Shown here piece after piece: positions 15,619-32,359 of a DNA stretch of 33,173 nucleotides; the stretch's first letter is position 1, and each line of letters opens with the position of its first letter. The stretch is from Solirubrobacteraceae bacterium (lineage in GTDB: Bacteria > Actinomycetota > Thermoleophilia > Solirubrobacterales > Solirubrobacteraceae): contig JADGPM010000147.1 in assembly GCA_017882425.1 (NCBI GenBank), positions 1 through 33,173 of the forward strand, given 5' to 3'. The translations under genes were made by a program, and so were the position numbers. A model generated the notes under the pieces. It worked only from the letters and a program-made list of their open reading frames with translations. It did no database searches and was not told the origin of the DNA.

Positions 15619-16134
15619 CTATGCGCGCCAGCTCATCCCGCCGGCGCGGCGGCGGAACTGGTCGCGGAAGAGCAGGAACGCAGCGAAGAAGACCACGCCC
15701 GCGACGACCAGCACGACGGCCTTCGACGGCTTGACGAAGACGGCGAGCGGCACGGCGGCGAGCATCGCGCAGAGCGCCGCCAGCAGCGCGGTGTGCGAGC
15801 GGAAGCCGGCGAAGTGCTCGCGCAGCGCGAGCTCGAGCGTCGCGAGGAAGACGAGCGCCAGGCCGAAGGCCAGCAGGATGCCGCGCGAGCCCCCGCCGCG
15901 CAGGATCGCGACGCCGAGCACCATCAGGCCCAGGAAGATGCAGATCTCGGTCAGCGGGACCGGGTACCACGGAGGGCGCGGCGCCTCCTCGAGCGGCGCC
16001 TTGCGCGCCCGCGGGCGCTCGTGGACGTCCTGCCGGACAGGGGTCGCCGGGGCCTCGGGCGACGCCGCGTCCTCGACGCGCTGCCCGGAGCGCGACGCGG
16101 GGCCTCCCCCGCGCTTGCGGCTGCGCCGTCCCAT
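15619..16134 (-). CDS. Membrane protein of unknown function with basic/Pro-rich N-terminus
   Basis: The 171-residue protein is unrecognised. Residues 1-55 are polar and basic (MGRRSRKRGGGPASRSG...) and should be cytoplasmic. About four hydrophobic helices follow: TEICIFLGLMVLGVAIL, ILLAFGLALVFLATLEL, LLAALCAMLAAVPLAVFV and VVLVVAGVVFFAAFLLF. The end is basic (RDQFRRRAGG). Its start codon is separated from the upstream stop by a single base (TGA-C-ATG), so it is coupled to the coiled-coil gene, and it is followed 10 bp later by the VOC gene. Confidence 0.75.
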   Translation of the reverse strand: MGRRSRKRGGGPASRSGQRVEDAASPEAPATPVRQDVHERPRARKAPLEEAPRPPWYPVPLTEICIFLGLMVLGVAILRGGGSRGILLAFGLALVFLATLELALREHFAGFRSHTALLAALCAMLAAVPLAVFVKPSKAVVLVVAGVVFFAAFLLFRDQFRRRAGGMSWRA

Positions 16135-16662: not shown

Positions 16663-17313
16663 TCACGCGAGAGTCAGCGCCTCCTGGCACGTCCACAGCG
16701 CCTCCTCGACGTGGATCGCGGGGACACCGGGGATCTGGACGGCGACGAGCCGCAGGTGCGTCGTGGCGCGGCCGGGTGCGGCGTCGGCCGCGACCTGGCC
16801 GAACAGCTCGGCGAGCGGCCGGCGGGCGTCCGCGAACACGATCCGCCCGGCGGGCATCGCCGACCCGCCCAGGCGCTCGCCGCGCGCCGTCAGGCGCAGA
16901 CCCGGGACGCCCTCGATCCGCGCGGCATCGAGCGCCGTGACGGGCACGCCCGTCTCGAGCAGGGCGAGCAGCAGCGCGTCGTCCAGCACCGTTCCCTGGC
17001 GGTAGCCGCCCTCGACGAGCCGGACGATCGCGGCCTCCTCGATCGGCGTGCGCCGGGACTCCGGGTCCAGGCCGACATGCCGGAAGAAGACCCGGTAGGC
17101 GGCGGGCACGGGCTCACGGCGCAGCTCGACCGCTCGGCGCCCGCGGAAGCGGTCGGCGAGGACCGCCAGCCGCTCGGCGATGCCCGGGTCGCGGCGACCG
17201 CGCGACAGGCCGACGACGACGCTCGTGCAGTGCAGGTCGGGGAACTCCGCCGCGAGCTCGCCGGCGACCTCGCCCGGCTCGAGCTGGGGATCCGGCGCAG
17301 GCTCGCCGCTCAC
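16663..17313 (-). CDS. B3/B4 tRNA-binding-domain protein
   Basis: The 216-residue protein corresponds to a free-standing B3/B4 domain as found in the beta subunit of phenylalanyl-tRNA synthetase (editing region). Recognisable parts are RRAVELRREPVPAAYRVFFRHVGLDP, TPIEEAAIVRLVEGGY, LLALLETGVPVTALDAARIEG and GRIVFADARRPLAELFG. Free B3/B4 proteins are thought to act in amino-acid or tRNA-linked quality control, but most are uncharacterised. The GTG start at 17313 overlaps the redoxin-like gene's stop as GTGA; the longer track ORF is antisense-frame extension. Why it is coupled to envelope genes is not evident. Confidence 0.8.
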   Translation of the reverse strand: MSGEPAPDPQLEPGEVAGELAAEFPDLHCTSVVVGLSRGRRDPGIAERLAVLADRFRGRRAVELRREPVPAAYRVFFRHVGLDPESRRTPIEEAAIVRLVEGGYRQGTVLDDALLLALLETGVPVTALDAARIEGVPGLRLTARGERLGGSAMPAGRIVFADARRPLAELFGQVAADAAPGRATTHLRLVAVQIPGVPAIHVEEALWTCQEALTLA

Positions 17314-18080
17314 GCCGCCGCCTCCCTGCGGCGCGCCTCCCGGGCCAGCGCCGTCAGCCTGCGGATGAGCGCCGCCTGGCCCAGCTCGCCGACGGTCGTT
17401 GCCACCACGACGCCTCCAGGCAGGATGTAGGTCACCTGCGGGCAGACCGCCACGCCGTAGAGGTTCGCGAGCGCCCCGTCGCGGTCGTAGGCGACCGGGA
17501 ACGCCCACCCGTGGCTCGTGACCACGTGCCGGAGCGCGTCGCGGTCGCTGCGCACGGCGACGGCGGCGAGGCGGACGTCCGGGACGGCGCGCCCGGCGCG
17601 AGCGAGCGCGTCGACCTCGCCGGTGCAGCGGTCCTGCCCGGAGGCGAAGAACACGACCGCAGCCGGGCGCGACCGCGTCAGGTCGCACGAGTTGAGGATC
17701 CCGCTGCCGCGCACCGAGCAGGCCGGACGCATGCCCGCCGCCCCCTGGTCGGGATGCTGGGCGACGTTGACATCGGCTTCCAGCCCGCCGAGCGCCAGCG
17801 GCGCTGCGAACCGCGGCGCGATCTTCCCGACCGGCGGACCGGTCGAGGAGACGCCGTGCGTGCGCAGCGTGTTCACGCCGACGACGACGAGCAGCGCGAC
17901 GCCCGCCAGCAGCAGGATCACGCCGGGCAGCCGCGCGCGGGTGGTGGCGCCGGGAAGCTTCGGGCGCGGGGGGCGACCTGCGCCGGAGCCTGCCGCGGCC
18001 TGCGGCGCCGGCGCCCGCGCCTCGTCCCCATCGCCCGGCCCGTCGCCGAAGCCGAGCGGGCCGTCGCCTCCGCCGCTCAC
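17310..18080 (-). CDS. Membrane-anchored thioredoxin-fold protein with atypical active site
   Basis: The 256-residue protein has a Gly/Pro-rich cytoplasmic N-terminus (1-50), one membrane helix (LPGVILLLAGVALLVVVGV, about 51-70) and an extracytoplasmic thioredoxin-like domain of the AhpC/TSA-TlpA type. In TlpA proteins the motif is WASWCPPC; here it reads FASGQDRC, so the first Cys is Gln and only Cys152 remains. A Cys directly precedes the presumed cis-Pro (AVCPQVTYIL, Cys213), and two more (Cys121, Cys132) lie in an insertion before the motif. It could still do thiol chemistry by another route or act as a binding domain (inference). It overlaps both neighbours by GTGA. Confidence 0.8.
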   Translation of the reverse strand: MSGGGDGPLGFGDGPGDGDEARAPAPQAAAGSGAGRPPRPKLPGATTRARLPGVILLLAGVALLVVVGVNTLRTHGVSSTGPPVGKIAPRFAAPLALGGLEADVNVAQHPDQGAAGMRPACSVRGSGILNSCDLTRSRPAAVVFFASGQDRCTGEVDALARAGRAVPDVRLAAVAVRSDRDALRHVVTSHGWAFPVAYDRDGALANLYGVAVCPQVTYILPGGVVVATTVGELGQAALIRRLTALAREARRREAAA

Positions 18081-20743
18081 GCCGCGGGTGCGCGCTCGAC
18101 CTGCGCGGCGCCGCGGCGGCGGGCCCGCACGGGGCGCGGGACGAGGGCGCCGCGCTCGGCGAGCACGAGCACGGCCGGGAGCACGATCAGCACGCCCAGC
18201 AGTGCGACCGCGAGGTCGATCACCGTGACGAAGCCGAAGTCGCGCAGCATCCTGATGTCCGAGACGATCAGGACGGCGAAGCCCGCGATCGCGGTCACGC
18301 CCGAGGTCAGGACCGCCACACCGGTCGAGCGATAGGTCCGCTGGAGCGCCTCGGCGACCTCATGGCCGGCCTCGCGCTCGGCGCGAAAGCGCTCGCTGAG
18401 CAGGACGCTGAACTCCGTCGCGATCGCGATGACGAGCGCTCCGAGCACGATCGACAGCGGGTTCAGCGGGATCCGCGTCAGGAACAGCACGAGCGCCGAC
18501 CAGCCCGTCGCCAGCACGATCGGCACGAGCGGCACGAGCGCGCGGCGCAGGTTGCGCAGCGCGAGCAGCAGCACGAGGCCGACGGCGAACAGGCCGGCGA
18601 GCAGCGTCTCGATGCGCCGCAGCGGCGAGGCGAGGCGGTCGTTGGCCTCCGCGGCGAGCACCGGCAGGCCCGCCAGGCGGGCCGTCACGCCCGGTGGCGG
18701 GTCGAGCCCCGCGCGCATCGTGCGCAGCACCTGGAACTGGCGCTCGAGCGGCATCAGCCGCAGCCCGAAGGCGAGCGTCGCCGTGCGCCGGTCCGGCGTG
18801 ATGACGCTCTGCGAGAAGTACGTCGGGACGGCGTCGAGCAGGCCGTCGACGCGCGCCCGCGAGGCCAGCGAGGCCTTCGTCGTGAAGAGGTCGGGCAACG
18901 AGAACGCCGGGCAGACGTCCGAGCGCCCGCAGCCGCGCTGCGCGCTGAACTTCAGCTTCCGCAGGATCCTGGCCTGGTAGCGGGTCATCCAGGCGACGAC
19001 CGCCGGGTCCGTCACGCGGCGCCCCTCGACGACGACGTCGACCTCGCCGCCGACGCCGCTGATGTCCTGCAGGCGCCTCAGATCGTGCAGAGCGTTCAGG
19101 TTCTGCGGCACGAGCTTCTGGACGTCGGACTCCACGCGGGTCTGCGTGTCGAGCGCCCAGCCCGCGACGGCGATGACTGCCGCGATCGCGAGGACGCGAC
19201 CGGGGCGCCCGATCGCCGCGCGCAGCGCGCCGTCGCCCGCGCGGCGCACGCCGTGGCTGACCGCCCCCCACGCGGCCGATCCGGTCACGATCTCGCCCGC
19301 GCCGTTCCAGGCCGCCTCGACGGCGGCGCGCGCACGGGCGAGCGTGCCGGCATCCTCACCCGGGTCGGTCGCCCGCGCCGCGCGGCGCGCCGCCAGGGAC
19401 TGCACCGCGACCCCGAGCGTCAGCGCGCACACGACGGCCAGCGCGATGCCGACCACGAGCAGGATCCCGAAGCCGCGGACCATCGGCACCGGCGAGAGCG
19501 CCAGCACGAGAAAGCCCGCGGCGGTCGCCGCGGCCGCGATCGCGATCGTCGGCGCGCCGCGCACCGCGACCCGCGCGATGCTCGGCTCCAGTTCCCCCGG
19601 CTCCTCCTGGATGCGCGACTGGATCTGGACGGCGTAGTCGACCGCGAGCCCGATGAGGATCGGGATCACCGCGATCGAGGCCATCGTCAGCCCGACGCCG
19701 CTGATCGCCATCACGCCGAACGTCAGCCCCGCCGCGGCCAGCGCGACGAGCAGCGGGATCAGGCGCAGCCGCGCGCGGAAGACCAGCAGCAGCGTCAGCG
19801 CCATCACGACGACCGCTGCGATCAGCAGGATCAGGATCGAGTGGGAGATCGCGCTCGAGAGCTCCTGCACGACGACCGGCGCGCCCGTGACCGCGTAGCT
19901 GCCGGCCGACAGGCGCCAGTTCTGCATCTGCGTCGCCGCGCGGATGTTCGCGATCGCCTCGCGCCGCGCGCGCTCGCCGATGCCGGCCTTCAGCCGCACC
20001 TGGATCAGCGCGCCCTGGGCCCCGGGGAAGATCGAGGCGAAGCGCGCCTTCGGCGTCCCTGCGGGCCGGCGGTCGTCGAACACCAGGCGCGAGATGAACT
20101 GCGGGTCGTCGAGGCTGGGTGCGGACGTCAGCCCGTAGCGCAGCGCGAGCTGCAGGAGCTGGGCGGTGAACTTCGCCTGGACGAGCTTGGCGGCCTGCTG
20201 GGCGTACGCCGTGGCAGCGGTCTTCCCCAGCCCGCGCGCCAGCGCGAGCTTGTACGCCGCGTCACCGGCCCGGCGCGAATCGGTGGCCTGCTTCGAGGTC
20301 GCCGCGGAGAGCTGGTCGGAGATCTGCCCGACGGCCTCGTTGAGGAACGTCCCCGGCCCGAAGACGACCTTCGCCGGCTTCGTCGCCGCCAGGCGCGCGC
20401 ACGGCCCGTTGGCGCCGCCGGCGGGCTTCTGCCCGGCGGGGACGTTGCCGGCCAGGCACCCTTCGAGGCCGAGCACCTGGTCCAGGTCGGACGTCAGGAC
20501 GACCCGCGAGACCGGCTCCCCCACGAGGATGTAGATCGCGTCGTCGCCGAAGCGCTTGTGCAGCGTGTCCGTGGCGGCGAAGCCGGCGGTGGAGCGGCCG
20601 ACGAGCGTGCTCGTGTCCGCGTTGGGCTCCAGGCGCAGCGCGAGGACCGCGCCGACGGCGGCGAGGACGAGCACGGTCGCGGCGACCGGGATCGGCCGGC
20701 GCGCCGCCAGGGCCATGAGCCGCCCGAGCAGCCGCGAGAGCAT
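18077..20743 (-). CDS. RND/MMPL-family transporter
   Basis: The 888-residue protein has the duplicated RND layout: one N-terminal helix, a large extracytoplasmic loop, five helices, then the same again. Helix-4 motif IPILIGLAVDYAVQIQSR keeps the Asp of the proton relay; the matching place in the second half is VIAIATEFSVLLSERF, with Glu instead. It resembles the predicted-exporter (MMPL, HpnN-like) group that moves lipids or lipid precursors. ATG 20743 (MLSRLLGRL) is chosen; the track GTG 20797 would overlap the preceding mce gene by 14 bp. Neither start has a clear Shine-Dalgarno. It lies 40 bp after the last mce gene and overlaps the next gene by GTGA. Confidence 0.9.
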   Translation of the reverse strand: MLSRLLGRLMALAARRPIPVAATVLVLAAVGAVLALRLEPNADTSTLVGRSTAGFAATDTLHKRFGDDAIYILVGEPVSRVVLTSDLDQVLGLEGCLAGNVPAGQKPAGGANGPCARLAATKPAKVVFGPGTFLNEAVGQISDQLSAATSKQATDSRRAGDAAYKLALARGLGKTAATAYAQQAAKLVQAKFTAQLLQLALRYGLTSAPSLDDPQFISRLVFDDRRPAGTPKARFASIFPGAQGALIQVRLKAGIGERARREAIANIRAATQMQNWRLSAGSYAVTGAPVVVQELSSAISHSILILLIAAVVVMALTLLLVFRARLRLIPLLVALAAAGLTFGVMAISGVGLTMASIAVIPILIGLAVDYAVQIQSRIQEEPGELEPSIARVAVRGAPTIAIAAAATAAGFLVLALSPVPMVRGFGILLVVGIALAVVCALTLGVAVQSLAARRAARATDPGEDAGTLARARAAVEAAWNGAGEIVTGSAAWGAVSHGVRRAGDGALRAAIGRPGRVLAIAAVIAVAGWALDTQTRVESDVQKLVPQNLNALHDLRRLQDISGVGGEVDVVVEGRRVTDPAVVAWMTRYQARILRKLKFSAQRGCGRSDVCPAFSLPDLFTTKASLASRARVDGLLDAVPTYFSQSVITPDRRTATLAFGLRLMPLERQFQVLRTMRAGLDPPPGVTARLAGLPVLAAEANDRLASPLRRIETLLAGLFAVGLVLLLALRNLRRALVPLVPIVLATGWSALVLFLTRIPLNPLSIVLGALVIAIATEFSVLLSERFRAEREAGHEVAEALQRTYRSTGVAVLTSGVTAIAGFAVLIVSDIRMLRDFGFVTVIDLAVALLGVLIVLPAVLVLAERGALVPRPVRARRRGAAQVERAPAA

Positions 20744-20783
20744 CGGGGGAACCGTACCGCCGCCCGGGAGCGTCAGGCGCCGA

Positions 20784-22301
20784 TCACGGGGCGACACCGA
20801 ACTTCAGCGGCGGCGGGTTCGTGCCGGCCGCAATCTGCGGGTACTGCGTCGTATTCCCGGACGCGCTGAAGTCGCTCTGCTGCCTGCATGGCACGGCCGG
20901 CACGTTCGCCGGATCGCCGCCGAGCGCGTAGAGGTTGATGTTGTCCGTCAGCGTCTGGCCGATCGCCGCCGCGGTGCCCGGAGCCAGCGAGGGCGTGATC
21001 CCGATCGAGCACTGGTTCGTCTTGAACTGGATCATGCCGCCGGGCAGCGCGTCGAAGGCGCGCGGGAAGACGTACGGGTTCGGGCGGTTGGACTTCACGC
21101 GCTGCGGGTAGCTCGTCAGCGCCTCGGGGCTGAGCGGGTTCGTCGTGCGCAGGTAGCGCACCTGGCGCCCGTTCGAGGCCGCCTGCGCGTTCGTCGCGGC
21201 CGTGACGTTCGCCATGAACGAGGTCAGCTCGTTCGGGTAGGCGCCGACGAACTGCAGCAGCGGGGTGATCTGCGCCAGCGACGGGTCGAGCGCCGAGAAG
21301 AACGGCGCCGCGCTCTTGAGGAACGCGTCGGTGGCCGGCAGGCCCTTGACCGACGCGCTGATCGCGGGGTCGAGGTTCGTGAACAGCGCGTTGAGATCGG
21401 GCGCCAGCTTCTGCAGCGCCTGCGCGGTCGGCGTCAGCTGCTGGGCGACCGGCTTGAGCTCGTTGACCAGCGGGTTCGTCGTGTCCGCGAACTGCACGAG
21501 GCGGTTCAGCGTGAGCGTCGACTCCTTCTCGAAGGTCGGCAGCGCGACGAACGTGGCCGCCAGCTGCGTGTTGAGCTTCCCGGTCGTCGCGAACACCGTG
21601 TTCGCGTTCTGGATCAGGCTGCGCAGCTGCCCGTCACGCGCGCTCAGCGCGCTGAAGACGACACCCGTGTTGCGCACCAGGCGGGTCAGCGCCGGGGGGT
21701 CGCGATTCAGGACCTTGGTCAGCGCGGTCGCCTGCTCCTCCAGCGGATCGAGCAGGGCGATCGAGTCGTTGATGTCGCGCCCGCGACCGGTCACCGCCAG
21801 CGCCTGCTCGATCTGCCAGACGCCGAACGCCGCGCGCGTCCTGGCGTCGAACGCCCGCGTGATCTCGTCCAGCTGGACCGTCGGCGCGACCACACCCGGT
21901 GCGAGGCGTCCGCCGTCGGGGACCGCCGGCGTGTTCGGGCGGCCGGGCGTCAGCTCGACGTATGTCTCCCCGAGCAGCGTCTTGGCGCGCAGCATGACGC
22001 GCGAGTCGCGCTTGACGGGCGCGTACTTGGGCTGCAGCTCGATCGTGACGTCCGAGTTGCCGGTGTGCGGGTTGGCGACGATCGACTTGACCTTGCCGAC
22101 CGAGACGCCCGAGATGCGCACGTCGGCCTCCTGCGCGAGCTGGCCGGCCTGCTTGAAGGGGATCACGACGCGGTAGCCCTTGGCGCGCAGCGGCGTGGAG
22201 CCGCCGAAGGCCACCCAGAGGAACAGGAGCAGGCCGAAGCACGAGAGCGCGAACAGCACCATCGTGAGGATGCGGCCGACGCTGGGGGCCTGCTTCTGCA
22301 T
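20784..22301 (-). CDS. MCE-domain protein, sixth of six
   Basis: This 505-residue protein has one N-terminal membrane helix (ILTMVLFALSCFGLLLFLWVAF), the MCE domain (about residues 42-118; YRVVIPFKQAGQLAQEADVRISGVSVGKV...) and a long helical tail expected to form part of a lipid-conducting tunnel. The C-terminal region has SNGRQVRYLRT and a Cys pair (NQCSIG and VPCRQQ). The Cys inside the membrane helix is not in a lipobox context. The ATG follows directly on the stop of the fifth MCE gene (TAG-ATG). By family knowledge MCE proteins act as hexamers with YrbE permeases and an ATPase to move lipids. Confidence 0.93.
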   Translation of the reverse strand: MQKQAPSVGRILTMVLFALSCFGLLLFLWVAFGGSTPLRAKGYRVVIPFKQAGQLAQEADVRISGVSVGKVKSIVANPHTGNSDVTIELQPKYAPVKRDSRVMLRAKTLLGETYVELTPGRPNTPAVPDGGRLAPGVVAPTVQLDEITRAFDARTRAAFGVWQIEQALAVTGRGRDINDSIALLDPLEEQATALTKVLNRDPPALTRLVRNTGVVFSALSARDGQLRSLIQNANTVFATTGKLNTQLAATFVALPTFEKESTLTLNRLVQFADTTNPLVNELKPVAQQLTPTAQALQKLAPDLNALFTNLDPAISASVKGLPATDAFLKSAAPFFSALDPSLAQITPLLQFVGAYPNELTSFMANVTAATNAQAASNGRQVRYLRTTNPLSPEALTSYPQRVKSNRPNPYVFPRAFDALPGGMIQFKTNQCSIGITPSLAPGTAAAIGQTLTDNINLYALGGDPANVPAVPCRQQSDFSASGNTTQYPQIAAGTNPPPLKFGVAP

Positions 22302-23813
22302 CTATCCCCCTGCCGCCTTCGCCGGCGCCGCCGGTGTCGCCGAGCTGACCGGCGCCGTCGCGGGCGCGCCCGTGCCCGTCGTGGTCGTCGCGGGGGGCGT
22401 GGCCCCGAGGCCGGCGGCCTGGGCCCTGGCGATCTCGGCGCTGTGCGAGCGGACGCGGGCGACTGCGGCCTTGGCGGCGGCCGCCCCGGCGCCCGTCCCG
22501 CAGACCTGCGCGGTCGTCGGGGCGTTCAGCAGCGCGGCGAGCGTGCCGAGCACGGGGTTGACCTTGCCGATCGCCTCGAGCGTCGCGAGCGACGAGCAGT
22601 TGCCGTAGACGAGGCCGCGACGGGTCGGGCCGTGCGCGTCCTGCGAGCCGAAGATCGAGGCGCCCTCGTGGTTCAGCCAGCCGAGCCAGTACAGGTAGCC
22701 CTTGCCCTTGGTCGGGCCGCTCGTCGGCTCGTATGCGAGCTCGTTGAAGAGCGTGTTGAGGACGCTCAGCGACTGACCCAGACCCGGCAGCGCCGTGGCG
22801 AGGTTCGCGGCGGCGGGCCGCAGCGCGGAGACCGTCGGCTGCGCGGCCTTCGTGAACGGGCTGAGCTGGTTCTCGATGACCGGCTTGGTCTCCTTCGCGA
22901 AGCTCTGGAAGCCCTTCTGCGCCGCCGCGAGGCCGTTGGCCGCCGGCAGCAGCCTGCCGAGCGTCGGCCCGAGCTCCGCCGACAGCGTCGAGGACTTCGT
23001 CAGCGCGGAGTCCGTCGCCTGCAGGGCACCCGGGAGCAGGCTGATCGTCTGGCTCAGGCTCGCCTGCTGATTCGCGAACGACTGAAAGACGCGGTTGGAG
23101 GAGTCGACGAACTGCGCGAGCTGGGTGTCGCGCGAGCCGAGCTCCTGCGCGATCAGGCGGAAGTTGTGGATCGAGCGCCGGATGTTCGCGCTGCGCGTGC
23201 GCAGCGCGGCGCCGATCCGCGTCAGGTAGCGCGCGGTCGGGTCGAAGCGCTTGAGCGTCGCCGAGAGGTTCGCGGCGTTGCCGCCCAGGCCCTCGCCGGC
23301 GCCGGCGACGAGCAGCCGCAGATAGGCGCGCGTGTCCGTGTCGAGGCCCGCGAGGATCTCGTCCGGGTTGATGTCCGGGCTGGTCTGCGCGACCGGCAGC
23401 GTGCCGTTCTCGGGGATCTTCCCGGCGCCCTTGTGGCCGGGATCGAGCTCGATGACCATGTCCTGCAGGCCGGTCTTGGGGCGCAGCAGCGCGGTCGCGT
23501 CGCGGTAGATCGGCGTGTACTGCTTCTTCATCTTCATCTGGACGATCGCACGGCCGTCCTTCAGCGTGACCTTGCCGATCTCGCCGACCTGGACGCCGGC
23601 GATCAGCACGGTCTGGCCCTGGCCCGGGGTGACCGCCTGCGCCGTCTGGAACTCGGCGTTGTAGTCGACGAAGCTGCTGCCGACGAGCGGCACCCAGGAG
23701 GGCAGGTAGAAGCGCTGGTGGGAGAGGATGAAGCCGCCGACGAGGATCGCGATCGCCGCGAGCGCGAGGATCGCGATGAAGTCCTTGAGGTGCTTGCGGA
23801 TTGCGAGTGCCAT
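22302..23813 (-). CDS. MCE-domain protein, fifth of six
   Basis: This 503-residue protein has a membrane helix (FIAILALAAIAILVGGFIL) after a basic start, an MCE domain with DYNAEFQTAQAVTPGQGQTV and LIAGVQVGEIGKV (about residues 50-130), and a long helical tail. The C-terminus is extended by an Ala/Thr/Pro-rich low-complexity region, probably wall-spanning. The Cys pair is VYGNCSSL and QVCGTG. ATG 23813 (MALAIRKHL) is used, since the track start at 23927 would reach back into the previous gene, whose stop is 8 bp upstream. Confidence 0.93.
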   Translation of the reverse strand: MALAIRKHLKDFIAILALAAIAILVGGFILSHQRFYLPSWVPLVGSSFVDYNAEFQTAQAVTPGQGQTVLIAGVQVGEIGKVTLKDGRAIVQMKMKKQYTPIYRDATALLRPKTGLQDMVIELDPGHKGAGKIPENGTLPVAQTSPDINPDEILAGLDTDTRAYLRLLVAGAGEGLGGNAANLSATLKRFDPTARYLTRIGAALRTRSANIRRSIHNFRLIAQELGSRDTQLAQFVDSSNRVFQSFANQQASLSQTISLLPGALQATDSALTKSSTLSAELGPTLGRLLPAANGLAAAQKGFQSFAKETKPVIENQLSPFTKAAQPTVSALRPAAANLATALPGLGQSLSVLNTLFNELAYEPTSGPTKGKGYLYWLGWLNHEGASIFGSQDAHGPTRRGLVYGNCSSLATLEAIGKVNPVLGTLAALLNAPTTAQVCGTGAGAAAAKAAVARVRSHSAEIARAQAAGLGATPPATTTTGTGAPATAPVSSATPAAPAKAAGG

Positions 23814-23821
23814 CAGTGGTC

Positions 23822-25315
23822 CTAGCCGGCGTCCGACGGGCCTGCGGGGAAGGCGTTGTAGTCCGGGATCTTCTGCGTGTAGCACGCCTTGTCGGCGCGG
23901 TACACGGGCTTCGTGCCGCCGTTCCATGCGGGGCGCGTTCCGAGCGGCTGGCCGACCGAGTTGCCGAACAGCGTGCCGCCGGCGCCCAGGTTGCCGCCGG
24001 TGAGCTTCACGCCGTAGTTGCCGCCGCCGGTCTGGAAGCGCACGTACTGGCCGTTGCCGTCGAAGTTCTGGCCCTCACCCGCGAGCCCGACCATCGAGTA
24101 CCAGAACTCCTTGTAGTTCTCCTGGTTCGTGGAGAACGGCCCGTCCTCGAGCTTCACGTCGCCGGCGGGCAGGATCACGTTGGAGACGCACCTGGAGAGG
24201 AGGTCGCCCTGCTGCAGGACCGGAATGCTCTCCGTGCTGGCCTTCGCCAGGCTCGCGGTGGCCGGCTGCAGGTCACCGACGAGGCCGCCCAGCTCCTCCT
24301 GGGAGACGAGCTTGCGGGTCGGCGCGATCCACGGCGTGACCGCGTCGATCGTCGGCTGCGTCTGCTCGACGCCGGGGACGAGCGCCAGCGAGAAGGCGCG
24401 GACGTTCGGGAGCGCGGCGTTCAGCCGCCCGAGCGAGGTGTAGGCGGTCTGCACGGTCGGTCCCAGCAGCGCCACCGACTGCTGCAGATTGCTCTGCTGG
24501 CTGGCGAGCGCGCCGAGCGTCGTGTTGAAGTTGTCGACGAGGTCGCCGAGCTGTTGCTCGCTGCTGGCGAGCTTCCTCCCCGTCGACGCCAGGCCCTGCA
24601 CGAGGCCCGTCAGGTCCGACGGCACGACGCCCTGCAGCGCCTGCTGGGTGATCGCGCTGTCGCGCAGCGCGCTCTTGCCGAACGGGATCGCGCTGTTCAG
24701 CGCCTGCGCCGCGGACTTGCCGTAGACGTACGGCGTCTGGTCGGCGTTCTCGGCCGCCGTCGGCTTCGCGGTCAGGGCCGTGCCGAGGCTCGCGAGCGTG
24801 ATCTGGAGCTGGCGGCGCGTGTCCTGCTGCAGCGCGGTGAGCACCTGGTCGAGCTGCACCGGCGTGGCCGTCTGGGCGACGGAGATCGTGTCGCCGTCGG
24901 AGATCGTCGGCGCCGACGGCGTGCCAGGGTGCAGGTCGACGAAGAAGTTGCCCTCCAGGAAGATGCGCGGGCGGATCTTCAGCTCGGCGTCCTTGTGGAT
25001 CGGCAGCCCCTGGTCCTGGACCTCCATCGTGATGACGGCGTTGTTCGTGCCGTCCTGGCCCTCGACCTTGGTGACCTTGCCGACGTTGACGCCGGCGATG
25101 CGCACCGGGGAGTTCAGGCGGATCGAGTTCGCCGACGGGAAGACCGCCTTGAACTCGAAGGGCCGCGAGAACGGATTGTTCTTCGTGAAGCCGAAGTACG
25201 AGATCAGCAGGACGCCGATCAGGACGAGGATGCCGACACGCACCGGGTTGGCGCCCGTGCGGTCCTTGCGCAGCGTGCGCGGGCGGCCGTCCTTGTTGCG
25301 ACGCAGGCTCGCCAT
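23822..25315 (-). CDS. MCE-domain protein, fourth of six
   Basis: The 497-residue protein has an unusually long, basic N-terminus (MASLRRNKDGRPRTLRKDR) before its membrane helix (VGILVLIGVLLISYFGF), then the MCE domain (EFKAVFPSANSIRLNSPVRIAGVNVGKV...; about 50-125). The helical tail ends in a region with FWYSMVGLAGEGQNFDGNG. The two cysteines are SRCVSN and KACYTQ. Its start overlaps the stop of the third gene by one base (TGATG), so the two are coupled. Confidence 0.93.
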   Translation of the reverse strand: MASLRRNKDGRPRTLRKDRTGANPVRVGILVLIGVLLISYFGFTKNNPFSRPFEFKAVFPSANSIRLNSPVRIAGVNVGKVTKVEGQDGTNNAVITMEVQDQGLPIHKDAELKIRPRIFLEGNFFVDLHPGTPSAPTISDGDTISVAQTATPVQLDQVLTALQQDTRRQLQITLASLGTALTAKPTAAENADQTPYVYGKSAAQALNSAIPFGKSALRDSAITQQALQGVVPSDLTGLVQGLASTGRKLASSEQQLGDLVDNFNTTLGALASQQSNLQQSVALLGPTVQTAYTSLGRLNAALPNVRAFSLALVPGVEQTQPTIDAVTPWIAPTRKLVSQEELGGLVGDLQPATASLAKASTESIPVLQQGDLLSRCVSNVILPAGDVKLEDGPFSTNQENYKEFWYSMVGLAGEGQNFDGNGQYVRFQTGGGNYGVKLTGGNLGAGGTLFGNSVGQPLGTRPAWNGGTKPVYRADKACYTQKIPDYNAFPAGPSDAG

Positions 25316-26724
25316 CAGGGCTTCGTGTTGTCGTGGAGGGTCGTCGGGGCCTGGCCGGGGACGTTGCCGATGACGACCTTGCCCGGGATGAACTTCTCGT
25401 TGCCCGCCTCACAGGTCTTCGGCTGCCCCGGAGCACCCGTGAACGGGTAGGGGTTGGAGTGCAGGAAGTTGTTCGGCGAGCCGCCGTTGGCCGGCGCCGA
25501 GGAGGGCGAGCCCTCGTTGTTGGGCCCGCTCGGCGCCGCGATGATCGAGAACCGCTGCAGCGTGCCGTTGCTGCCGCCCTCGCTCAGCAGGCTCGACGCG
25601 TTGCGCAGCGCCGTGCCGAGGTAGTTGCAGACCGTCTGGGCCGGCGTGATGAAGGCGATCGTCGGCTCGAGGATCCCCGCAGCGGTCGCGAGGTCGTTGA
25701 CGCCCAGCTTCACGAGCGGGTCGGTGCTGAACGCCTCGACGGACTTCAGCGTCGTCGCAACTCGCGCGTTGAAGGCCGGCGAGCGCTGCAGTACGGGCGT
25801 GCCGATGCGGACCGTGTCGGCGAGGTCCGGCGCCGCGTCGGCGAGCGCGTTGATGCCGGGCTGCAGCTGGTGGAAGAGGTCGGCGCTGTTGGCCAGGAAG
25901 GGCCGGATCTGCGGCAGGTCGCGGATCGCCGTCGCCAGCGCGGGGACGCCGCCGACGATCGACTGCTGGATCGGCGTCGTGACCCCCGCGAGGGCGCTGA
26001 ACGTCGAGTCCAGGTTGCGGTAGAGGGCGGCCTGCGTCTCGGCGGCGGGCGCGACGACCGAGGCGGCGCGGGCGAGTCCGCGCAGGAAGCCGCGCAGGTC
26101 CGTTCTCGTGCTCGACAGGTTGCGCATCACGGGCCCGAGCTCTGTGAGCAGCGGGTCGAGGTCCTTGATCGCGAAGTTCAGGTCCGCCCCGCGGCCGGCG
26201 AAGCCGTTGCCGAACGCCAGCAGGTTCGCCTGGATCGCCCGGCGCGTCGGGTCGCTGAACATGTTGAAGACCTGGTCCAGCTCGACCGGCTCGGGCTTGG
26301 CCTGGGCAAGCGGCAGCGTCCCGCCGTCGGGCACCGTCTTCGAGCTCGTCCCGCGGGTGAGCTGGACGTACTTCAGCCCGAGCGCCGACCGCGGGCGGAT
26401 GATCACGAGCGTGTCGACCGGCAGCGGCTTGGCGACCGTCTGCAGGTTGAGGTCGATGACCGCGGTGACCGCCCCGTTGGGGTGCGACTGCGGCGTGATG
26501 CCCGACACGAGGCCGATCCGCGTGCCACCGATGCGCACGTCGTTGCCCTTCACCAGGCCGGCCGAGTTCGGGACGTCGACCCGCACGTGGTAGGTCGGCA
26601 CGAACGGCAGGCCGGAGTTCGCGTTGTAGGCGAGGTACACCGCGACGATGACGACGAGGATCGTCGCCGCGCCGATCAGCACGGGGTTCGCTGCGATCGA
26701 GGCTGCTCCGGTGCGCCGTCTCAT
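25315..26724 (-). CDS. MCE-domain protein, third of six
   Basis: This 469-residue protein starts MRRRTGAASIAANPVLIGA, then a membrane helix (ATILVVIVAVYLAY) and the MCE domain (YHVRVDVPNSAGLVKGNDV, RIGGTRIGLV; about 45-120). The tail is helical, and the end is rich in Ser/Asn/Pro (EGSPSSAPANGGSPNN). The two cysteines are TVCNYLG and KTCEAGN. The ATG overlaps the second gene's stop by 4 bp (ATGA). Confidence 0.93.
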   Translation of the reverse strand: MRRRTGAASIAANPVLIGAATILVVIVAVYLAYNANSGLPFVPTYHVRVDVPNSAGLVKGNDVRIGGTRIGLVSGITPQSHPNGAVTAVIDLNLQTVAKPLPVDTLVIIRPRSALGLKYVQLTRGTSSKTVPDGGTLPLAQAKPEPVELDQVFNMFSDPTRRAIQANLLAFGNGFAGRGADLNFAIKDLDPLLTELGPVMRNLSSTRTDLRGFLRGLARAASVVAPAAETQAALYRNLDSTFSALAGVTTPIQQSIVGGVPALATAIRDLPQIRPFLANSADLFHQLQPGINALADAAPDLADTVRIGTPVLQRSPAFNARVATTLKSVEAFSTDPLVKLGVNDLATAAGILEPTIAFITPAQTVCNYLGTALRNASSLLSEGGSNGTLQRFSIIAAPSGPNNEGSPSSAPANGGSPNNFLHSNPYPFTGAPGQPKTCEAGNEKFIPGKVVIGNVPGQAPTTLHDNTKP

Positions 26725-28217
26725 TCGCCCAGGAGATAGTCGAGGAGGGATTGGACGGAGCGCGCGTCGGGCGCCCGCTTCGGGGTCGACGAGGTCGTCG
26801 GCGCGGCGCCCGCGCCCGGCTTGACGCCGCTGTCGCCCGGCAGGATCGTCGTCGGCAGCTTGATCGCCGCGGGTGTCGCCGCGGTCGTCGAGCCTGCCTG
26901 CGCGGACGACCCCGTGCTCTTCGACGACACCGCCTGCGCGCTCGCGGCGGCGGTGCCCGCGCTCGGCGAGGTGGTCGAGGACCCGAGGTCCTTGTTGAAG
27001 TTCGCGGTGCAGCCGAGCTGGTTGACCAGGACGTACGTCTGGCAGGTCGTCAGCACGAGCCGGGCGCGCAGGTAGTGGCCATACTGGTCGTAGCCGTTGA
27101 TGCCGCCCGCGCCGTAGAAGACGAAGTCCATCAGGCGGTTGATGCCGCCCTGCGTCTTCAGTGAGGTCAGGAACGCGCTGAGATTCTGCGTCAGCGGCAC
27201 GGCCGTCTTGGAGAGCGTGCCGAGGCTCTGCACGAGCGGCAGCGAGGCCTGCAGCGCAGGCCCGCCGATGTCCGCCGTGTCGCCCAGGCTCTTGAACGCC
27301 GTCGTGCCGGCGCTGGTGAAGGCCGGCGCGCCGGTGACGAACGTGTTGATCGAGTCGGCCGAGCGCGAGAGGTCCGAGACGACCGGCGTGAACTGGTCCG
27401 ACAGGTTGCCGAGCTCGTTCATCGTCGGCGTCAGCTGGCGCAGGAACGGCGGGAAGAGCTTGATGTTCGCCTGCAGCGCGATGCTCTTCTCGGCGGTCGC
27501 GGTCGCCGTCTTGGCCGAGGCGTTGATGAAGCCCTGGATCTGCTTGCGCGAGCGCGCCAGCGGCGCGAGCACGGTGTCGCCGTTGACGGCCAGCGAGGCG
27601 AGCGTGCGGTTCTGCTGGGCGAGGATCGCGAGCACCTGGTCGAACGCCTTGAACGCCGGGTTGGACTGCTTCAGCGCGGCGTTGAGTGCCGCGCCGTTGC
27701 CGGCCAGACCGGTCCCGAGCTCGTTGATGATGATCGTGAACCGCTCACGCAGCGGCAGGCGCATGATGTTGTTCAGCAGGTCGATGTCGATCGCCTTGGC
27801 GGTGTTCGTCGACGGCAGCAGGTACTGGCCCTTGCCCGGGCCGTTCTTGATCTTCGGCAGCAGCGGCGCCGGCGCCGTGCCGGGCGCGCGCGGCTGCGTC
27901 GGCTGGCACTCGATGAACTTCTCGCCGATCAGCGATTGCGGGCGCACGATGCAGAAGGCGTCGGTGCGGAAGTCGTGGTAGTTCGGGTCGTCGATGGCCA
28001 GGACGACCGCGGCCTTGTTGTCCGGCGTCAGGTCGAGCGTCTCGATCTTCCCCACGCGGACGCCGGCGATCTTCACGTCCTCCCCGGGGATGACGAAGGA
28101 GGCGTTCTTGAAGATCGCGCGCACGCGGTAGCTGCCGTCGTTGCCCGAGCCCGTCGCGAAGACGACGAGCACGGCGCCCGCGAGGACCAGCACGAGGATG
28201 GCGGCGATCCGCTTCAC
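26721..28217 (-). CDS. MCE-domain protein, second of six
   Basis: The 498-residue protein has a membrane helix right at the start (IAAILVLVLAGAVLVVFA), the MCE domain (YRVRAIFKNASFVIPGEDVKIAGVRVGKI; about 30-110) and a helical tail. After that comes NRLMDFVFYGAGGINGYDQY and a low-complexity Ser/Thr/Ala/Pro C-terminus of about 100 residues. It is the only one with extra cysteines inside the MCE domain (DAFCIV, FIECQP), besides the C-terminal pair TTCQTYVLVNQLGC. It starts 4 bp after the first MCE gene. Confidence 0.93.
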   Translation of the reverse strand: MKRIAAILVLVLAGAVLVVFATGSGNDGSYRVRAIFKNASFVIPGEDVKIAGVRVGKIETLDLTPDNKAAVVLAIDDPNYHDFRTDAFCIVRPQSLIGEKFIECQPTQPRAPGTAPAPLLPKIKNGPGKGQYLLPSTNTAKAIDIDLLNNIMRLPLRERFTIIINELGTGLAGNGAALNAALKQSNPAFKAFDQVLAILAQQNRTLASLAVNGDTVLAPLARSRKQIQGFINASAKTATATAEKSIALQANIKLFPPFLRQLTPTMNELGNLSDQFTPVVSDLSRSADSINTFVTGAPAFTSAGTTAFKSLGDTADIGGPALQASLPLVQSLGTLSKTAVPLTQNLSAFLTSLKTQGGINRLMDFVFYGAGGINGYDQYGHYLRARLVLTTCQTYVLVNQLGCTANFNKDLGSSTTSPSAGTAAASAQAVSSKSTGSSAQAGSTTAATPAAIKLPTTILPGDSGVKPGAGAAPTTSSTPKRAPDARSVQSLLDYLLGE

Positions 28218-28221
28218 GCGA

Positions 28222-29565
28222 TCACGGCCCCGGAGGAACGATCGAGGCTTGGCAGTCGAGCTTGCCGCCGGTGTCCTGCCACGGCGCGCTGCCGTCGGCC
28301 GGCCGCTGGATCGCGGCGCCAGGGCAGCGCTGGACGATCGACGCGCCGTTCTCCAGGCCCGGCGTGCGGAGCGCCGGCGGGACCGGGACCAGCTCGTTCG
28401 AGGGCGCGTCGTACTTGAAGGCGTTGAAGACCGGCGCGACGCGCGCGAAGTGCCCGTTGGCGTCGTAGTTCGAGGCGCCCTGGCCGAAGTCGCGCAGCCA
28501 GCCGACGAGGTCCGGCGAGTACGGGCGGATGAAGTTGAAGACCGGCGTCGAATCCTTCAGCGCGGTGACCGCGTTCGGGAAGGACGTCGACGCGACGTTC
28601 GACAGCTGCGGGGAGGTCGTCAGCAGATCGGTGAGGTCGTTGCTCGGCCCGGGCTGGCGCGCGAGCTTGGCGAGCTGGGCGATCGTCGGCTGGGATTCGG
28701 TCAGCAGCGGGCGCAGCGTCGCCAGGAACGGGGCGAGGTTCTTCGATGCGGGCTTGGACGCGGCGACGAGCTTGTCGACGTCGTCCAGCGCGAGGCGCAG
28801 GTCGACGAACGTCGTGCTGGCGCGGCGCAGCGTCTGCGGCAGCAGTGAGAGTGCCTGGGAGAGCGAGGCGTTCTCGGAGGCGATCGCGCCGAAGGTCGTG
28901 TCCGCGTTGGAGACGAGGTCGGTCAGCGTCGGCGCCTTGCGCGCCAGCGTCGTGACGACCTGCGAGGTGTCCTGGACGAGCGTGTTGAGCGCGACCTGGT
29001 CGGCGTTCAGCTTCTCGAGGACATTGCGTGTGGACGACAGCGCGGGCGGGAAGTAGCGCCCGGCGGCGTTCGCCTGCAGGCCCTTGCCGGCGTACCAGGT
29101 CGCGAAGCCCTGGATCGTGTCGGCGAGGCCCTTGCGCGTCGGGGCGTCGAGCGTGTTGAAGAGCTGGTCGAGGTCGACGATCGTGGTCGTCTTGTCCGCG
29201 GCGAGCACCGCGCCGTCGGCCAGCTTGGGAGCGTTGTCGGGGCCCGGGCTGAGCGCGATGTAGCGGTTGGCGACGCCGGAGAGCGAGGTCGCGCGGATCA
29301 CCGCGGTCGTGCCTTCGTGCAGCGGCGCGTACGGCTTGTCCACCTCGATCGTGATCTCGGCCTGGTTGTTCGCGGTGAGCTGGACGTCCTTCACCGAGCC
29401 CACGCGCCGCCCGCCGACCTGGACGTCGTTGTCGTTGACCAGCTGCCCGGCCGTCTGGAAGACGAGCTTGTACTGGTGCGCGCCGTTGCCGCCGAGCAGC
29501 AGGATCGCCACGAGGGCGGCCGCGACCACGAGCGCACCGAGCGTCATCGCCCGGGCGGTGGTCAT
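28222..29565 (-). CDS. MCE-domain protein, first of six
   Basis: This 447-residue protein, the shortest of the set, has a membrane helix (MTLGALVVAAALVAILLLGG), the MCE domain (YKLVFQTAGQLVNDNDVQVGGRRVGSV; about 31-108) and a helical tail. The C-terminal region has WLRDFGQGASNYDANGHFAR and the Cys pair VQRCPG and LDCQAS, the only two cysteines in the protein. The ATG is preceded by GAGGGGGACGC. A 107-bp gap separates it from the ATPase gene, the largest gap in the mce block. Confidence 0.93.
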   Translation of the reverse strand: MTTARAMTLGALVVAAALVAILLLGGNGAHQYKLVFQTAGQLVNDNDVQVGGRRVGSVKDVQLTANNQAEITIEVDKPYAPLHEGTTAVIRATSLSGVANRYIALSPGPDNAPKLADGAVLAADKTTTIVDLDQLFNTLDAPTRKGLADTIQGFATWYAGKGLQANAAGRYFPPALSSTRNVLEKLNADQVALNTLVQDTSQVVTTLARKAPTLTDLVSNADTTFGAIASENASLSQALSLLPQTLRRASTTFVDLRLALDDVDKLVAASKPASKNLAPFLATLRPLLTESQPTIAQLAKLARQPGPSNDLTDLLTTSPQLSNVASTSFPNAVTALKDSTPVFNFIRPYSPDLVGWLRDFGQGASNYDANGHFARVAPVFNAFKYDAPSNELVPVPPALRTPGLENGASIVQRCPGAAIQRPADGSAPWQDTGGKLDCQASIVPPGP

Positions 29566-29672: not shown

Positions 29673-30731
29673 TCACTCCATCCCGAGCGGCCCCTGTGCC
29701 GCCCCGGAGAGGAACTGACGGACGAAGGCGTTGTCGGAGTTGAACAGCTCGGCGGCCGGGCCGGACTCCACGATCCGCCCGCGCCACAGCACCGCGATGT
29801 ACTCCGCGACGCGGCGGGCGCTCATGATGTCGTGGGTGATGACGGTGTAGGCCCCGCCGTTCTCCTCGTGGATCTCCTGGATGAGCTCGCAGAGGAGCGC
29901 CGTACGCACCGGGTCCAGCCCGGAGTCCGGCTCGTCGAACAGGACGATGTCCGGGTCGAGCACCAGCGCGCGGGCGAACCCTGCGCGCTTGCGCATCCCG
30001 CCGGAGAGCTCGTTGGGGAACTTGTCGCCCGCCTCGCCGAGGCCGACCTCCGAGAGGCGCCGGCCGACGATCTCGAGGATCTCGTCCTCGCCCTTGTCGG
30101 TGTGCTGGCGCAGCGGGAAGGCCACGTTGTCGAGCAGGTTCATCGAGCCGAACAGCGCGCCGTCCTGGAAGAGGACGCCGAACTTCTTGCGCATCGCGAA
30201 CAGCTCGTCGTCGCGCATGTTCGGGACCGACTCGCCGTGCACGACGACGTCGCCGTCGTCCGGGTAGAGCAGGCCGACCATGTGCTTGATGCAGACCGAC
30301 TTGCCCGTGCCCGACGGCCCGAGGATCATCGAGATCTTGCCCTCGGGCAGGCCCATGTTGAGCCCGCGCAGGATCTTGTTGCGCCCGAACGCCTTGTGGA
30401 CCTCGATGAACTCGACGGCGTCCGGCACGCCCGTCGGGCGGTTGAGGCCGGTGTGCCAGCGGTACTCGTCGTCCTGGCCGCGCTCGGCCTCGTGCACGAC
30501 GGAGACGCGCGCGGCGTCCGCGTCGGCGTTCGGGTGCTCGGCCTGGAACCTGGCGACGGCGGGCGGCAGGTCGGGCTCGTCGACTCCGGCGCCGGTGCTC
30601 GCCTCGGCCTCGACGGCGGCCTCGCGCTCGTTGCTCCGCTCCGCGAACGACTCGCCCGCGAGCTGATCCTTCGTCGGGAGATCCTCGGCCGGCGTGCCGT
30701 CCGCGTTGGTCCGGAAGTCGTCCTCGCCCAT
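29673..30731 (-). CDS. Mkl/MlaF-like ATPase of the Mce system
   Basis: This 352-residue protein has an MlaF/Mkl (MceG)-type ABC domain from about residue 105: Walker A GPSGTGKS (138-145), Q-loop GVLFQDGALF, signature ELSGGMRKRAGFARAL, Walker B DIVLFDEPDSGLDPV and switch His in ITHDIMS. The first 100 or so residues are acidic, polar and probably disordered (MGEDDFRTNADGTPAEDLPT...), an extension not needed for ATP hydrolysis. In mycobacteria the corresponding MceG is encoded away from the mce loci; here it lies inside the operon, between permeases and MCE genes. It starts 2 bp after the yrbE-B stop. ATG 30731 is chosen because the longer track ORF is only antisense-type extension. Confidence 0.93.
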   Translation of the reverse strand: MGEDDFRTNADGTPAEDLPTKDQLAGESFAERSNEREAAVEAEASTGAGVDEPDLPPAVARFQAEHPNADADAARVSVVHEAERGQDDEYRWHTGLNRPTGVPDAVEFIEVHKAFGRNKILRGLNMGLPEGKISMILGPSGTGKSVCIKHMVGLLYPDDGDVVVHGESVPNMRDDELFAMRKKFGVLFQDGALFGSMNLLDNVAFPLRQHTDKGEDEILEIVGRRLSEVGLGEAGDKFPNELSGGMRKRAGFARALVLDPDIVLFDEPDSGLDPVRTALLCELIQEIHEENGGAYTVITHDIMSARRVAEYIAVLWRGRIVESGPAAELFNSDNAFVRQFLSGAAQGPLGME

Positions 30732-30733
30732 CC

Positions 30734-31534
30734 TCACCCTCCGATCGGTGCGCGCGGGTTCGCGCCCCAGAAGACCTGCGTGCCGAGCATCCCGATGAGG
30801 TGCACGAGCACGATGTTGAGCACCATCGACTTCGCGGTCGCGGTTCCCACGCCCACAGGGCCACCGCTCGCCGTGTAGCCGTAGTAACAGCCGACGAGGA
30901 CGATGACCGTCGCCATGACCATGGCTTTGGTCAGGCTGAACACGAGGTCCGGTGGATTCTGGAACTGCCAGAAGATCAGCGAGTAGCCGCCCTGGGAGAC
31001 CTCGCCGATCTGGACGACCACCGCGAGGTAGCTGGCGAAGAAGCCGGCGCCGATCGCGGCGATGTACATGAACGGCAGCACGATCCAGGCGGCGAGCAGG
31101 CGCGTCGCGCACAGGAAGGTCATCGAGTCGATGCCCATGACCTCGAGCGCGTCGATCTCGTCGGAGATCCGCATCGAGCCGAGCTCGGCGACGATGCCGG
31201 TGCCGACCTTCGCTGCCATCATGTAGCCGAACGCGTACGGGACGAGCTCGCGCAGGTCGCACCAGGCGGCGAAGACGCCCGCGTAGGCCGGCGCGCCGAC
31301 CGAGCGGTTGAAGTACGCGCCCTCGATCCCGCACTGCAGCCCGATGATGAAGACCAGGCCCCAGATGACGATCGTCGAGGAGACGATCAGCACGCCGGCC
31401 TGGCGCAGGGCCTCGCCGAAGTAGCGGATGACCTTGAGCCCGAGGACCTCGCCGAGGATCCGGCCGCAGAACTTCGCGATCTCCCCGAACGACGCGAGCC
31501 AGTCGCGCGGGACGCTGAGCCAGCTGCTGCCCAT
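30734..31534 (-). CDS. YrbE/MlaE-family permease B of the Mce system
   Basis: The 266-residue membrane protein shows the MlaE/YrbE fold: a N-terminal amphipathic segment (FGEIAKFCGRILGEVLGLKV), about five helices, the conserved cytoplasmic motif ISDEIDALEVMGIDSMTFL that docks to the ATPase, and CYYGYTASGGPVGVGTATAK near the end. With YrbE-A it forms the membrane channel below the MCE hexamer. ATG 31534 has GGAGGACC upstream and lies 18 bp after yrbE-A. Confidence 0.93.
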   Translation of the reverse strand: MGSSWLSVPRDWLASFGEIAKFCGRILGEVLGLKVIRYFGEALRQAGVLIVSSTIVIWGLVFIIGLQCGIEGAYFNRSVGAPAYAGVFAAWCDLRELVPYAFGYMMAAKVGTGIVAELGSMRISDEIDALEVMGIDSMTFLCATRLLAAWIVLPFMYIAAIGAGFFASYLAVVVQIGEVSQGGYSLIFWQFQNPPDLVFSLTKAMVMATVIVLVGCYYGYTASGGPVGVGTATAKSMVLNIVLVHLIGMLGTQVFWGANPRAPIGG

Positions 31535-31552: not shown

Positions 31553-32359
31553 TCAGCGGATGACGTTGATCTCCGGGTGGGTGGCCAGCAGCGTCTGGGT
31601 GAACACGTAGTTGAACGCGAAGACGCCGAGGAAGGCGATCACGACCGCCTGGTTCACCGCGCGCCCGACACCGGCGGCGCCGCCCGAGGCGGTCATGCCC
31701 TTGTAACAACAGACGATCGCGATGATCGCGCCGAACATCAGGCACTTGAGGACCGACCCCCAGAGGTCCGTCACCGAGGCGTTCGTGAAGAAGGTCGCCC
31801 AGAACGGCCCGAGCGGGGCGTGGTTCACGAGCGTGGTCATGATCCCGCCGAAGATGCCGAACAGCAGCGCGTAGACGTCGAACAGGCCGGTCACGAGCAT
31901 CAGCGCGAGGAAGCGCGGCACGACGAGGTTCTTGATCGGGTCGACGCCGAGCACCTGGAGGGCGTCGAGCTCCTCGCGGATCTTGCGGGCGCCGAGGTCG
32001 GCGGTGATCGCGGTGCCCGCCACGCCGGCGAGGACGATCGCGGTCACGAAGGGCGCGAACTCGCGGATCGACGCGAGGACGAAGAAGCCCCCGAGGCGAT
32101 CGAGCGCGCCGAAGAGGACGAGGAAGTTCGCGGCCTGCAGCCCGGGCGCCGCGTAGCCGAAGGCGACGGTCGAGATCAGCAGCGGGAACCAGCAGAGGCG
32201 CAGCGCGAACAGGAACTGGGAGATGAACTCGCCGCCGTAGGGGTACGGGGGACGGATCGCGGAGACGATCGTCTTCCCCGTGAGGATCATCATGTCCCCG
32301 ATCTCCTCGAACAGCTCCCTGGCAGGGCTGATCGCCCTGTCGGCGGTGCTTCGAACCAT
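31553..32359 (-). CDS. YrbE/MlaE-family permease A of the Mce system
   Basis: This 268-residue protein is the first gene of the mce operon. It has the MlaE-family layout, with IREFAPFVTAIVLAGVAGTA, the docking motif IREELDALQVLGVDPIKNL and the ending CCYKGMTASGGAAGVGRAVN. ATG 32359 is chosen over the track start at 32434 because a strong Shine-Dalgarno (GGAGAGGAGGGGAGC) is directly upstream and the family N-terminus starts here. A promoter lies about 60 bp upstream. Pairing with YrbE-B in a heterodimer is the usual actinobacterial arrangement. Confidence 0.93.
   Translation of the reverse strand: MVRSTADRAISPARELFEEIGDMMILTGKTIVSAIRPPYPYGGEFISQFLFALRLCWFPLLISTVAFGYAAPGLQAANFLVLFGALDRLGGFFVLASIREFAPFVTAIVLAGVAGTAITADLGARKIREELDALQVLGVDPIKNLVVPRFLALMLVTGLFDVYALLFGIFGGIMTTLVNHAPLGPFWATFFTNASVTDLWGSVLKCLMFGAIIAIVCCYKGMTASGGAAGVGRAVNQAVVIAFLGVFAFNYVFTQTLLATHPEINVIR

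What the first reader, a model, noticed from the sequence alone, without database searches (positions are those of the whole stretch)
17310..29565. Every one of the six MCE proteins has a C-terminal cysteine pair, and the operon encodes an extracytoplasmic thioredoxin-fold protein
Read directly: MCE1 RCPG/DCQA, MCE2 TTCQ/LGCT, MCE3 VCNY/TCEA, MCE4 RCVS/ACYT, MCE5 NCSS/VCGT, MCE6 QCSI/PCRQ. Outside these, cysteines are almost absent from the set. The proteins otherwise diverge, so a shared pair implies selection, probably for a disulfide outside the membrane. A redox-fold protein three genes further on could make, shuffle or bind these bonds (inference).
Basis: partly seen in the sequence, partly recalled or inferred. 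Interest (0 to 1): 0.65.

Follow-up and report, generated by a model that had tools for sequence, protein, structure and literature searches.

The report
Paired cysteines in MCE transporter tails
The six tunnel proteins of a bacterial lipid transporter each end in a domain with a conserved cysteine pair, a rule that holds across the whole phylum and very probably means disulfide-stapled tips, while the thioredoxin-like protein encoded next door travels with the machine but lacks the usual active site and is not needed for the pairs.

Summary
All six MCE proteins of this Solirubrobacterales operon have exactly two cysteines in the C-terminal tail, nearly invariant in orthologues down to 34-39% identity. 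This points to intrachain disulfides in the tip ('portal') domain as a phylum-wide rule.

The redoxin part is half right. The gene at 17310-18080 (RDX) encodes a membrane-anchored ResA-like thioredoxin fold, found only in Solirubrobacterales and always beside YrbE/MceG/MMPL/MCE genes where contigs allow. But the first CXXC cysteine is absent in every relative. It has four invariant cysteines of its own, and often stays with MMPL where the MCE genes are elsewhere. Operons without RDX keep the pairs, including one relative where RDX is missing between its usual neighbours. DsbA-like proteins occur in all nine genomes checked.

Best reading: structural disulfides made by the general pathway, plus an accessory thioredoxin-fold subunit without CXXC.

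The parts
31553..32359 (-). YrbE-A permease (MlaE family)
   Evidence: Pfam MlaE E=1.9e-57
30734..31534 (-). YrbE-B permease (MlaE family)
   Evidence: Pfam MlaE E=2e-55
29673..30731 (-). MceG/MlaF-like ABC ATPase, 352 aa
   Evidence: reading frame located and read; 64-92% identical neighbours in the same place in relatives
28222..29565 (-). MCE1; tail cysteines C414 (28324-28326) and C438 (28252-28254)
   Evidence: MlaD domain; pair 20/20 conserved; coordinates
26721..28217 (-). MCE2; tail cysteines C392 (27042-27044) and C403 (27009-27011); second pair in the MCE domain C89 (27951-27953) and C104 (27906-27908)
   Evidence: tail pair 18/19, domain pair 19/19
25315..26724 (-). MCE3; tail cysteines C366 (25627-25629) and C438 (25411-25413)
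   Evidence: pair 21/21
23822..25315 (-). MCE4; tail cysteines C376 (24188-24190) and C478 (23882-23884)
   Evidence: pair 23/23
22302..23813 (-). MCE5; tail cysteines C406 (22596-22598) and C438 (22500-22502)
   Evidence: 24/24 and 22/24, the two exceptions with a displaced second cysteine
20784..22301 (-). MCE6; tail cysteines C431 (21009-21011) and C472 (20886-20888)
   Evidence: pair 24/24
18077..20797 (-). MMPL transporter with two invariant cysteine pairs in its large loops: C114/C133 (20456-20458, 20399-20401) and C623/C629 (18929-18931, 18911-18913)
   Evidence: Pfam MMPL E=1.5e-46; 37/37 and 39/39; loops between predicted membrane helices
17310..18080 (-). RDX, membrane-anchored ResA-like thioredoxin-fold protein without CXXC; invariant C121 (17718-17720), C132 (17685-17687), C152 (17625-17627), C213 (17442-17444)
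16663..17313 (-). B3/4-domain-like protein that usually follows RDX
   Evidence: weak Pfam B3_4 E=0.0044, below its cut-off; neighbour in most related loci
15619..16134 (-). small membrane protein, conserved neighbour

Best explanation
The operon encodes a six-subunit MCE lipid transporter (YrbE-A/B permease, MceG-like ATPase, MCE1-6 tunnel) joined to an MMPL transporter. Each MCE tail holds an intrachain disulfide that staples the C-terminal tip ('portal') domain, as in actinobacterial MCE proteins generally. The bonds are made after export by the general DsbA-type pathway. RDX is a membrane-anchored, ResA-derived thioredoxin-fold accessory subunit of the YrbE-MceG-MMPL-MCE machine. It has lost the canonical CXXC and holds two cysteine pairs of its own (probably C121-C132 and C152-C213), so it most likely acts as a binding or assembly subunit and not as the catalyst of the tail bonds. 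Shown: the pairs, their conservation and parity, the thioredoxin fold (predicted), the missing CXXC, the gene association, and pairs without RDX. Inferred: that the bonds form, that they are intrachain, who makes them, and what RDX does.
For: Tail pairs invariant or nearly so in orthologues. 447/447 tails even against about 50% odd for W, M and H, and all 328, 157 and 39 cluster representatives at 60, 45 and 35% identity even. Subunits lose pairs as a unit (L102 MCE2; L107-L109 MCE2 and MCE6). The tail is the extracytoplasmic portal in Mce1 (PMC9882608). RDX: ResA-like fold, no first CXXC cysteine in 41 and 43 relatives, four invariant cysteines. Association with the system. Pairs without RDX, including G036, where RDX is missing from its slot and from the genome. 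DsbA-like proteins in 9/9 genomes, VKOR in 10/16, DsbB in G009 and G013.
Against: Neither VKOR nor DsbB was found in the own genome, which is 80.8% complete. The strict keeping of C152 and C213 next to the cis-proline hints that RDX may still do redox chemistry. Sequences are related, so the parity count is not a set of independent draws.
Confidence: 0.72

Rival explanations
1. RDX is a dedicated oxidoreductase or isomerase with a non-canonical active site (C152 on the helix, C213 before the cis-proline) that acts on the disulfides of MCE tails and/or MMPL loops in this order.
For: C152, C213 and P214 invariant in 43/43; co-occurrence with MCE 15/16 against 0/83; MMPL next to RDX also has two invariant loop pairs; no VKOR or DsbB found in the own genome.
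Against: First CXXC cysteine absent in all relatives; tail pairs equally strict without RDX; G036 lost RDX and kept all six MCE pairs; RDX-free families do the same job.
Confidence: 0.17
2. The tail cysteines form bonds between neighbouring MCE subunits, linking the six-membered tip covalently.
For: Six of six subunits carry a pair here, so a closed ring of bonds is conceivable.
Against: Parity holds chain by chain in 447/447; in several operons two subunits have none while the other four keep two (L107-L109, L112), which a ring of interchain bonds would not allow.
Confidence: 0.06
3. The tail cysteines bind a metal or another cofactor and do not form disulfides.
For: Strict conservation alone would fit.
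Against: The two cysteines are 11 to 102 residues apart with different spacing in each subunit; the place is extracytoplasmic; counts go up and down in twos.
Confidence: 0.03

Closest known systems
Mycobacterial Mce1 transporter (YrbE1A/B, MceG, Mce1A-F; PDB 8FED/8FEE/8FEF; PMC9882608)
   Same: Two YrbE permeases, an MceG-like ATPase and six MCE proteins with membrane helix, MCE domain, helical region and C-terminal tail. Tail cysteines of mycobacteria-like relatives align with cysteines of 8FED chains A, B, D and F.
   Different: Here the ATPase is in the operon, MMPL and RDX follow, all six tails carry a pair, and the tails themselves do not align with the Mce1 tails by sequence.
ResA / TlpA-type thiol-disulfide oxidoreductases (PDB 1st9, 4nmu, 2h1b)
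   Same: Predicted fold with membrane anchor and extracytoplasmic thioredoxin domain; best fold match E=2.5e-10, profile match E=2e-14.
   Different: First CXXC cysteine missing in every relative; a cysteine stands just before the cis-proline; an added C121-x10-C132 pair.
MMPL (RND-type) lipid transporters
   Same: Pfam MMPL, E=1.5e-46.
   Different: Encoded in an MCE operon, with two invariant cysteine pairs in the large loops.
Peroxiredoxins (AhpC/TSA)
   Same: Pfam AhpC-TSA match just above its cut-off (27.4 against 26 bits).
   Different: No PxxxT/SxxC motif around C152 (sequence FFASGQDRC); ResA-type structures are the best fold matches.

Membership tests
Actinobacterial MCE transporter operon | two adjacent YrbE (MlaE) permease genes followed by six MCE genes | tested here: met
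Actinobacterial MCE transporter operon | an MceG/MlaF-like ATPase | tested here: met
   gene at 29673-30731 with Walker A GPSGTGKS and ABC signature LSGGM read; conserved in the same place in relatives
Actinobacterial MCE transporter operon | hexameric tunnel with a C-terminal portal | not testable with these tools
   single-chain MCE4 model poor; no multimer prediction available
Disulfide-bonded MCE tails | conserved, even-numbered tail cysteines | tested here: met
Disulfide-bonded MCE tails | paired cysteines within bonding distance | tested here: inconclusive
ResA/TlpA thiol-disulfide oxidoreductase | thioredoxin fold behind a membrane anchor | tested here: met
ResA/TlpA thiol-disulfide oxidoreductase | CXXC active site | tested here: not met
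   first cysteine replaced (G, E, S, Q, D and others) in all relatives
ResA/TlpA thiol-disulfide oxidoreductase | cis-proline loop | tested here: met
   P214 invariant, 43/43, aligned with the ResA proline
Peroxiredoxin | PxxxT/SxxC motif | tested here: not met
   FFASGQDRC in the window; not conserved in relatives
General oxidative folding route in these genomes | DsbA-like protein with a VKOR or DsbB partner | tested here: inconclusive
   DsbA-like 9/9 including own genome (2 copies), VKOR 10/16, DsbB in G009 and G013; neither VKOR nor DsbB found in the incomplete own genome, nor in G035 or G054

The most novel reading that the evidence does not exclude
RDX is the type member of a lineage of thioredoxin-fold proteins with a split active site (C152 on the helix, C213 before the cis-proline) that serves as the dedicated redox partner of an MCE-MMPL envelope lipid machine, forming or checking disulfides in the MMPL loops and the MCE tips.
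Probability: 0.15. Interest if true: 0.72.

Novelty: new variant of a known kind. Interest (0 to 1): 0.5.

Why it matters
The parity rule implies that the tip domains of actinobacterial MCE importers, a family that includes the fatty-acid and cholesterol importers of mycobacteria, are disulfide-stapled. That would tie lipid import to oxidative protein folding, and it can be checked at once in an existing structure. The two key papers read here (Mce1 structure preprint PMC9882608, mce phylogenomics PMC1810536) mention neither disulfides nor paired tail cysteines. In Solirubrobacterales the system is also joined to an MMPL transporter and a thioredoxin-fold protein without CXXC, an arrangement I found no description of in the open-licence papers searched.

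Tried and rejected
Peroxiredoxin reading of RDX: rejected, no motif and a better ResA match. RDX as required maker of the tail bonds: rejected, pairs occur without it. Ring of interchain bonds: unlikely, since subunits lose pairs independently. AF2 of MCE4 as a distance test: failed (pLDDT 56), and no coordinates are handed out, so no distances were computed for any protein. The 40-sequence RDX alignment was too diverse for the genome-contig scan; an 8-sequence subset worked. Weak RDX hits in G033, G021 and G175 are ordinary CXXC thioredoxins without the cysteine before the cis-proline. Apparent absence of RDX in G002 and G003 is explained by contig ends inside MMPL; G025 and G030 are incomplete assemblies and stay unresolved.

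Full report
What is there. The minus strand from 32359 down to about 15619 reads YrbE-A, YrbE-B, an MceG/MlaF-like ATPase, MCE1 to MCE6, an MMPL transporter, the redoxin-like gene (RDX), a B3/4-like protein and a small membrane protein. The window lies in a Solirubrobacterales genome: relatives of RDX in named records are Solirubrobacterales, Conexibacter and Patulibacter. The own assembly has 3.09 Mb in 351 contigs, is 80.8% complete, and holds exactly these six MCE domains.

The observation. The only others are a second pair in MCE2 (C89/C104, 19/19 conserved) and C21 in the MCE6 membrane helix. In 18 to 23 orthologous operons per subunit the tail cysteines are invariant or nearly so, down to 34-39% identity. 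The one MCE2 that loses one tail cysteine loses both.

A phylum-wide rule. Of 447 distinct tails, 41 have none, 388 two, 11 four, 4 six, 3 eight, and none an odd number. In the same tails W, M and H counts are odd in 220, 227 and 234 cases. Cytoplasmic and membrane proteins from the same loci show about as many odd as even cysteine counts. With one representative per cluster, all 328, 157 and 39 clusters at 60, 45 and 35% identity are still even. The sequences are related, so I do not read the Poisson figures as exact probabilities. But counts change in twos within clusters of orthologues, which is what disulfides require. Because parity holds per chain, and because MCE2 and MCE6 can lack a pair while the other four keep theirs (L107-L109), the bonds are most likely within a chain.

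Where they sit. In the M. smegmatis Mce1 structure the C-termini of the six Mce proteins form the portal, a small six-stranded barrel with irregular surroundings near the outer membrane (PMC9882608). The tail cysteines of a mycobacteria-like operon (L138) align with cysteines of 8FED chains B, F, A and D. The text of that paper does not mention disulfides, nor does the 2007 phylogenomic study, which calls the tails low-complexity (PMC1810536).

The redoxin-like protein. AF2 gives a confident thioredoxin fold behind one membrane helix (pLDDT 86), and the best solved folds are ResA. But the first CXXC cysteine is missing in every relative, while C121, C132, C152, C213 and P214 are invariant in 43/43. 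C152 aligns with the second CXXC cysteine of ResA, and C213 takes the place just before the cis-proline. C121-C132 and C152-C213 are the natural guess for its bonds (inference).

Association. In 99 genomes of the class, RDX proper (E below 1e-57) is in 15 of 16 MCE-positive and 0 of 83 MCE-negative genomes (Fisher p about 7e-17, not corrected for kinship, and all positives are one order). The sixteenth has a contig end inside MMPL. Within the order, four genomes without MCE also lack RDX (G017, G021, G031, G033). Neighbourhoods say more. RDX is almost always the gene after MMPL. In many genomes the locus is YrbE-A, YrbE-B, ATPase, MMPL, RDX with no MCE, and the six MCE genes stand elsewhere, still with their pairs (L079, L081, L087, L091, L094-L100 against L115-L119, L121, L153-L155). 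In Patulibacter minatonensis RDX directly follows MCE6 without MMPL (L085/L188). So RDX belongs to the whole machine and not specifically to the MCE tails. MMPL itself carries two invariant pairs in its large loops.

Does RDX make the tail bonds? Probably not. Pairs are just as strict where RDX does not exist, including operons in which all six tails have cysteines (L128, L135). In G036 the operon runs YrbE-YrbE-ATPase-MCE1-6-MMPL-small membrane protein, with RDX missing from its slot and from the genome, yet all six MCE pairs and the first MMPL loop pair are there. DsbA-like proteins are in all nine genomes checked, VKOR in 10 of 16, DsbB in two relatives of the window's genus. For the own genome the re-oxidising partner was not found, which may be incompleteness.

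Verdict. The structural disulfide reading is well supported by sequence, though not by structure. The redox-partner reading of RDX is reduced to an association. The most interesting leftovers are the phylum-wide parity rule and a thioredoxin-fold protein without CXXC that is tied to an MCE-MMPL machine.

Noticed in passing
18077-20797 (minus): An MMPL (RND-type) transporter gene directly follows MCE6, with two invariant cysteine pairs in its large loops (C114/C133, C623/C629).
   Followed up: partly
L079, L081, L082, L087, L091, L094-L100, L103; MCE sets L115-L119, L121, L153-L155: In many Solirubrobacterales the system is split: YrbE-A/B, ATPase, MMPL, RDX and B3/4-like genes at one locus without MCE genes, and MCE1-6 elsewhere without permease genes.
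   Followed up: partly
26721-28217, residues C89 and C104 of MCE2: A second cysteine pair lies inside the MCE domain of MCE2 only, invariant in 19/19 orthologues.
   Followed up: no
30734-31534, residues C68 and C92 of YrbE-B: Two cysteines of the permease YrbE-B are conserved in 33 of 34 relatives, possibly in a loop outside the membrane.
   Followed up: no
G024 (contig C1), loci L106-L114: One relative of the same family has at least 49 MCE domains and ten YrbE-A-like genes, more YrbE hits than any mycobacteria-like genome in the same scan.
   Followed up: no
L146 (G036): RDX is missing between MMPL and the small membrane protein gene although both neighbours remain: a natural deletion for comparison.
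   Followed up: yes
L180, L182, L196: Three metagenome-assembled records titled Bifidobacterium breve carry Solirubrobacterales-type MCE-MMPL-RDX loci and look mislabelled.
   Followed up: no
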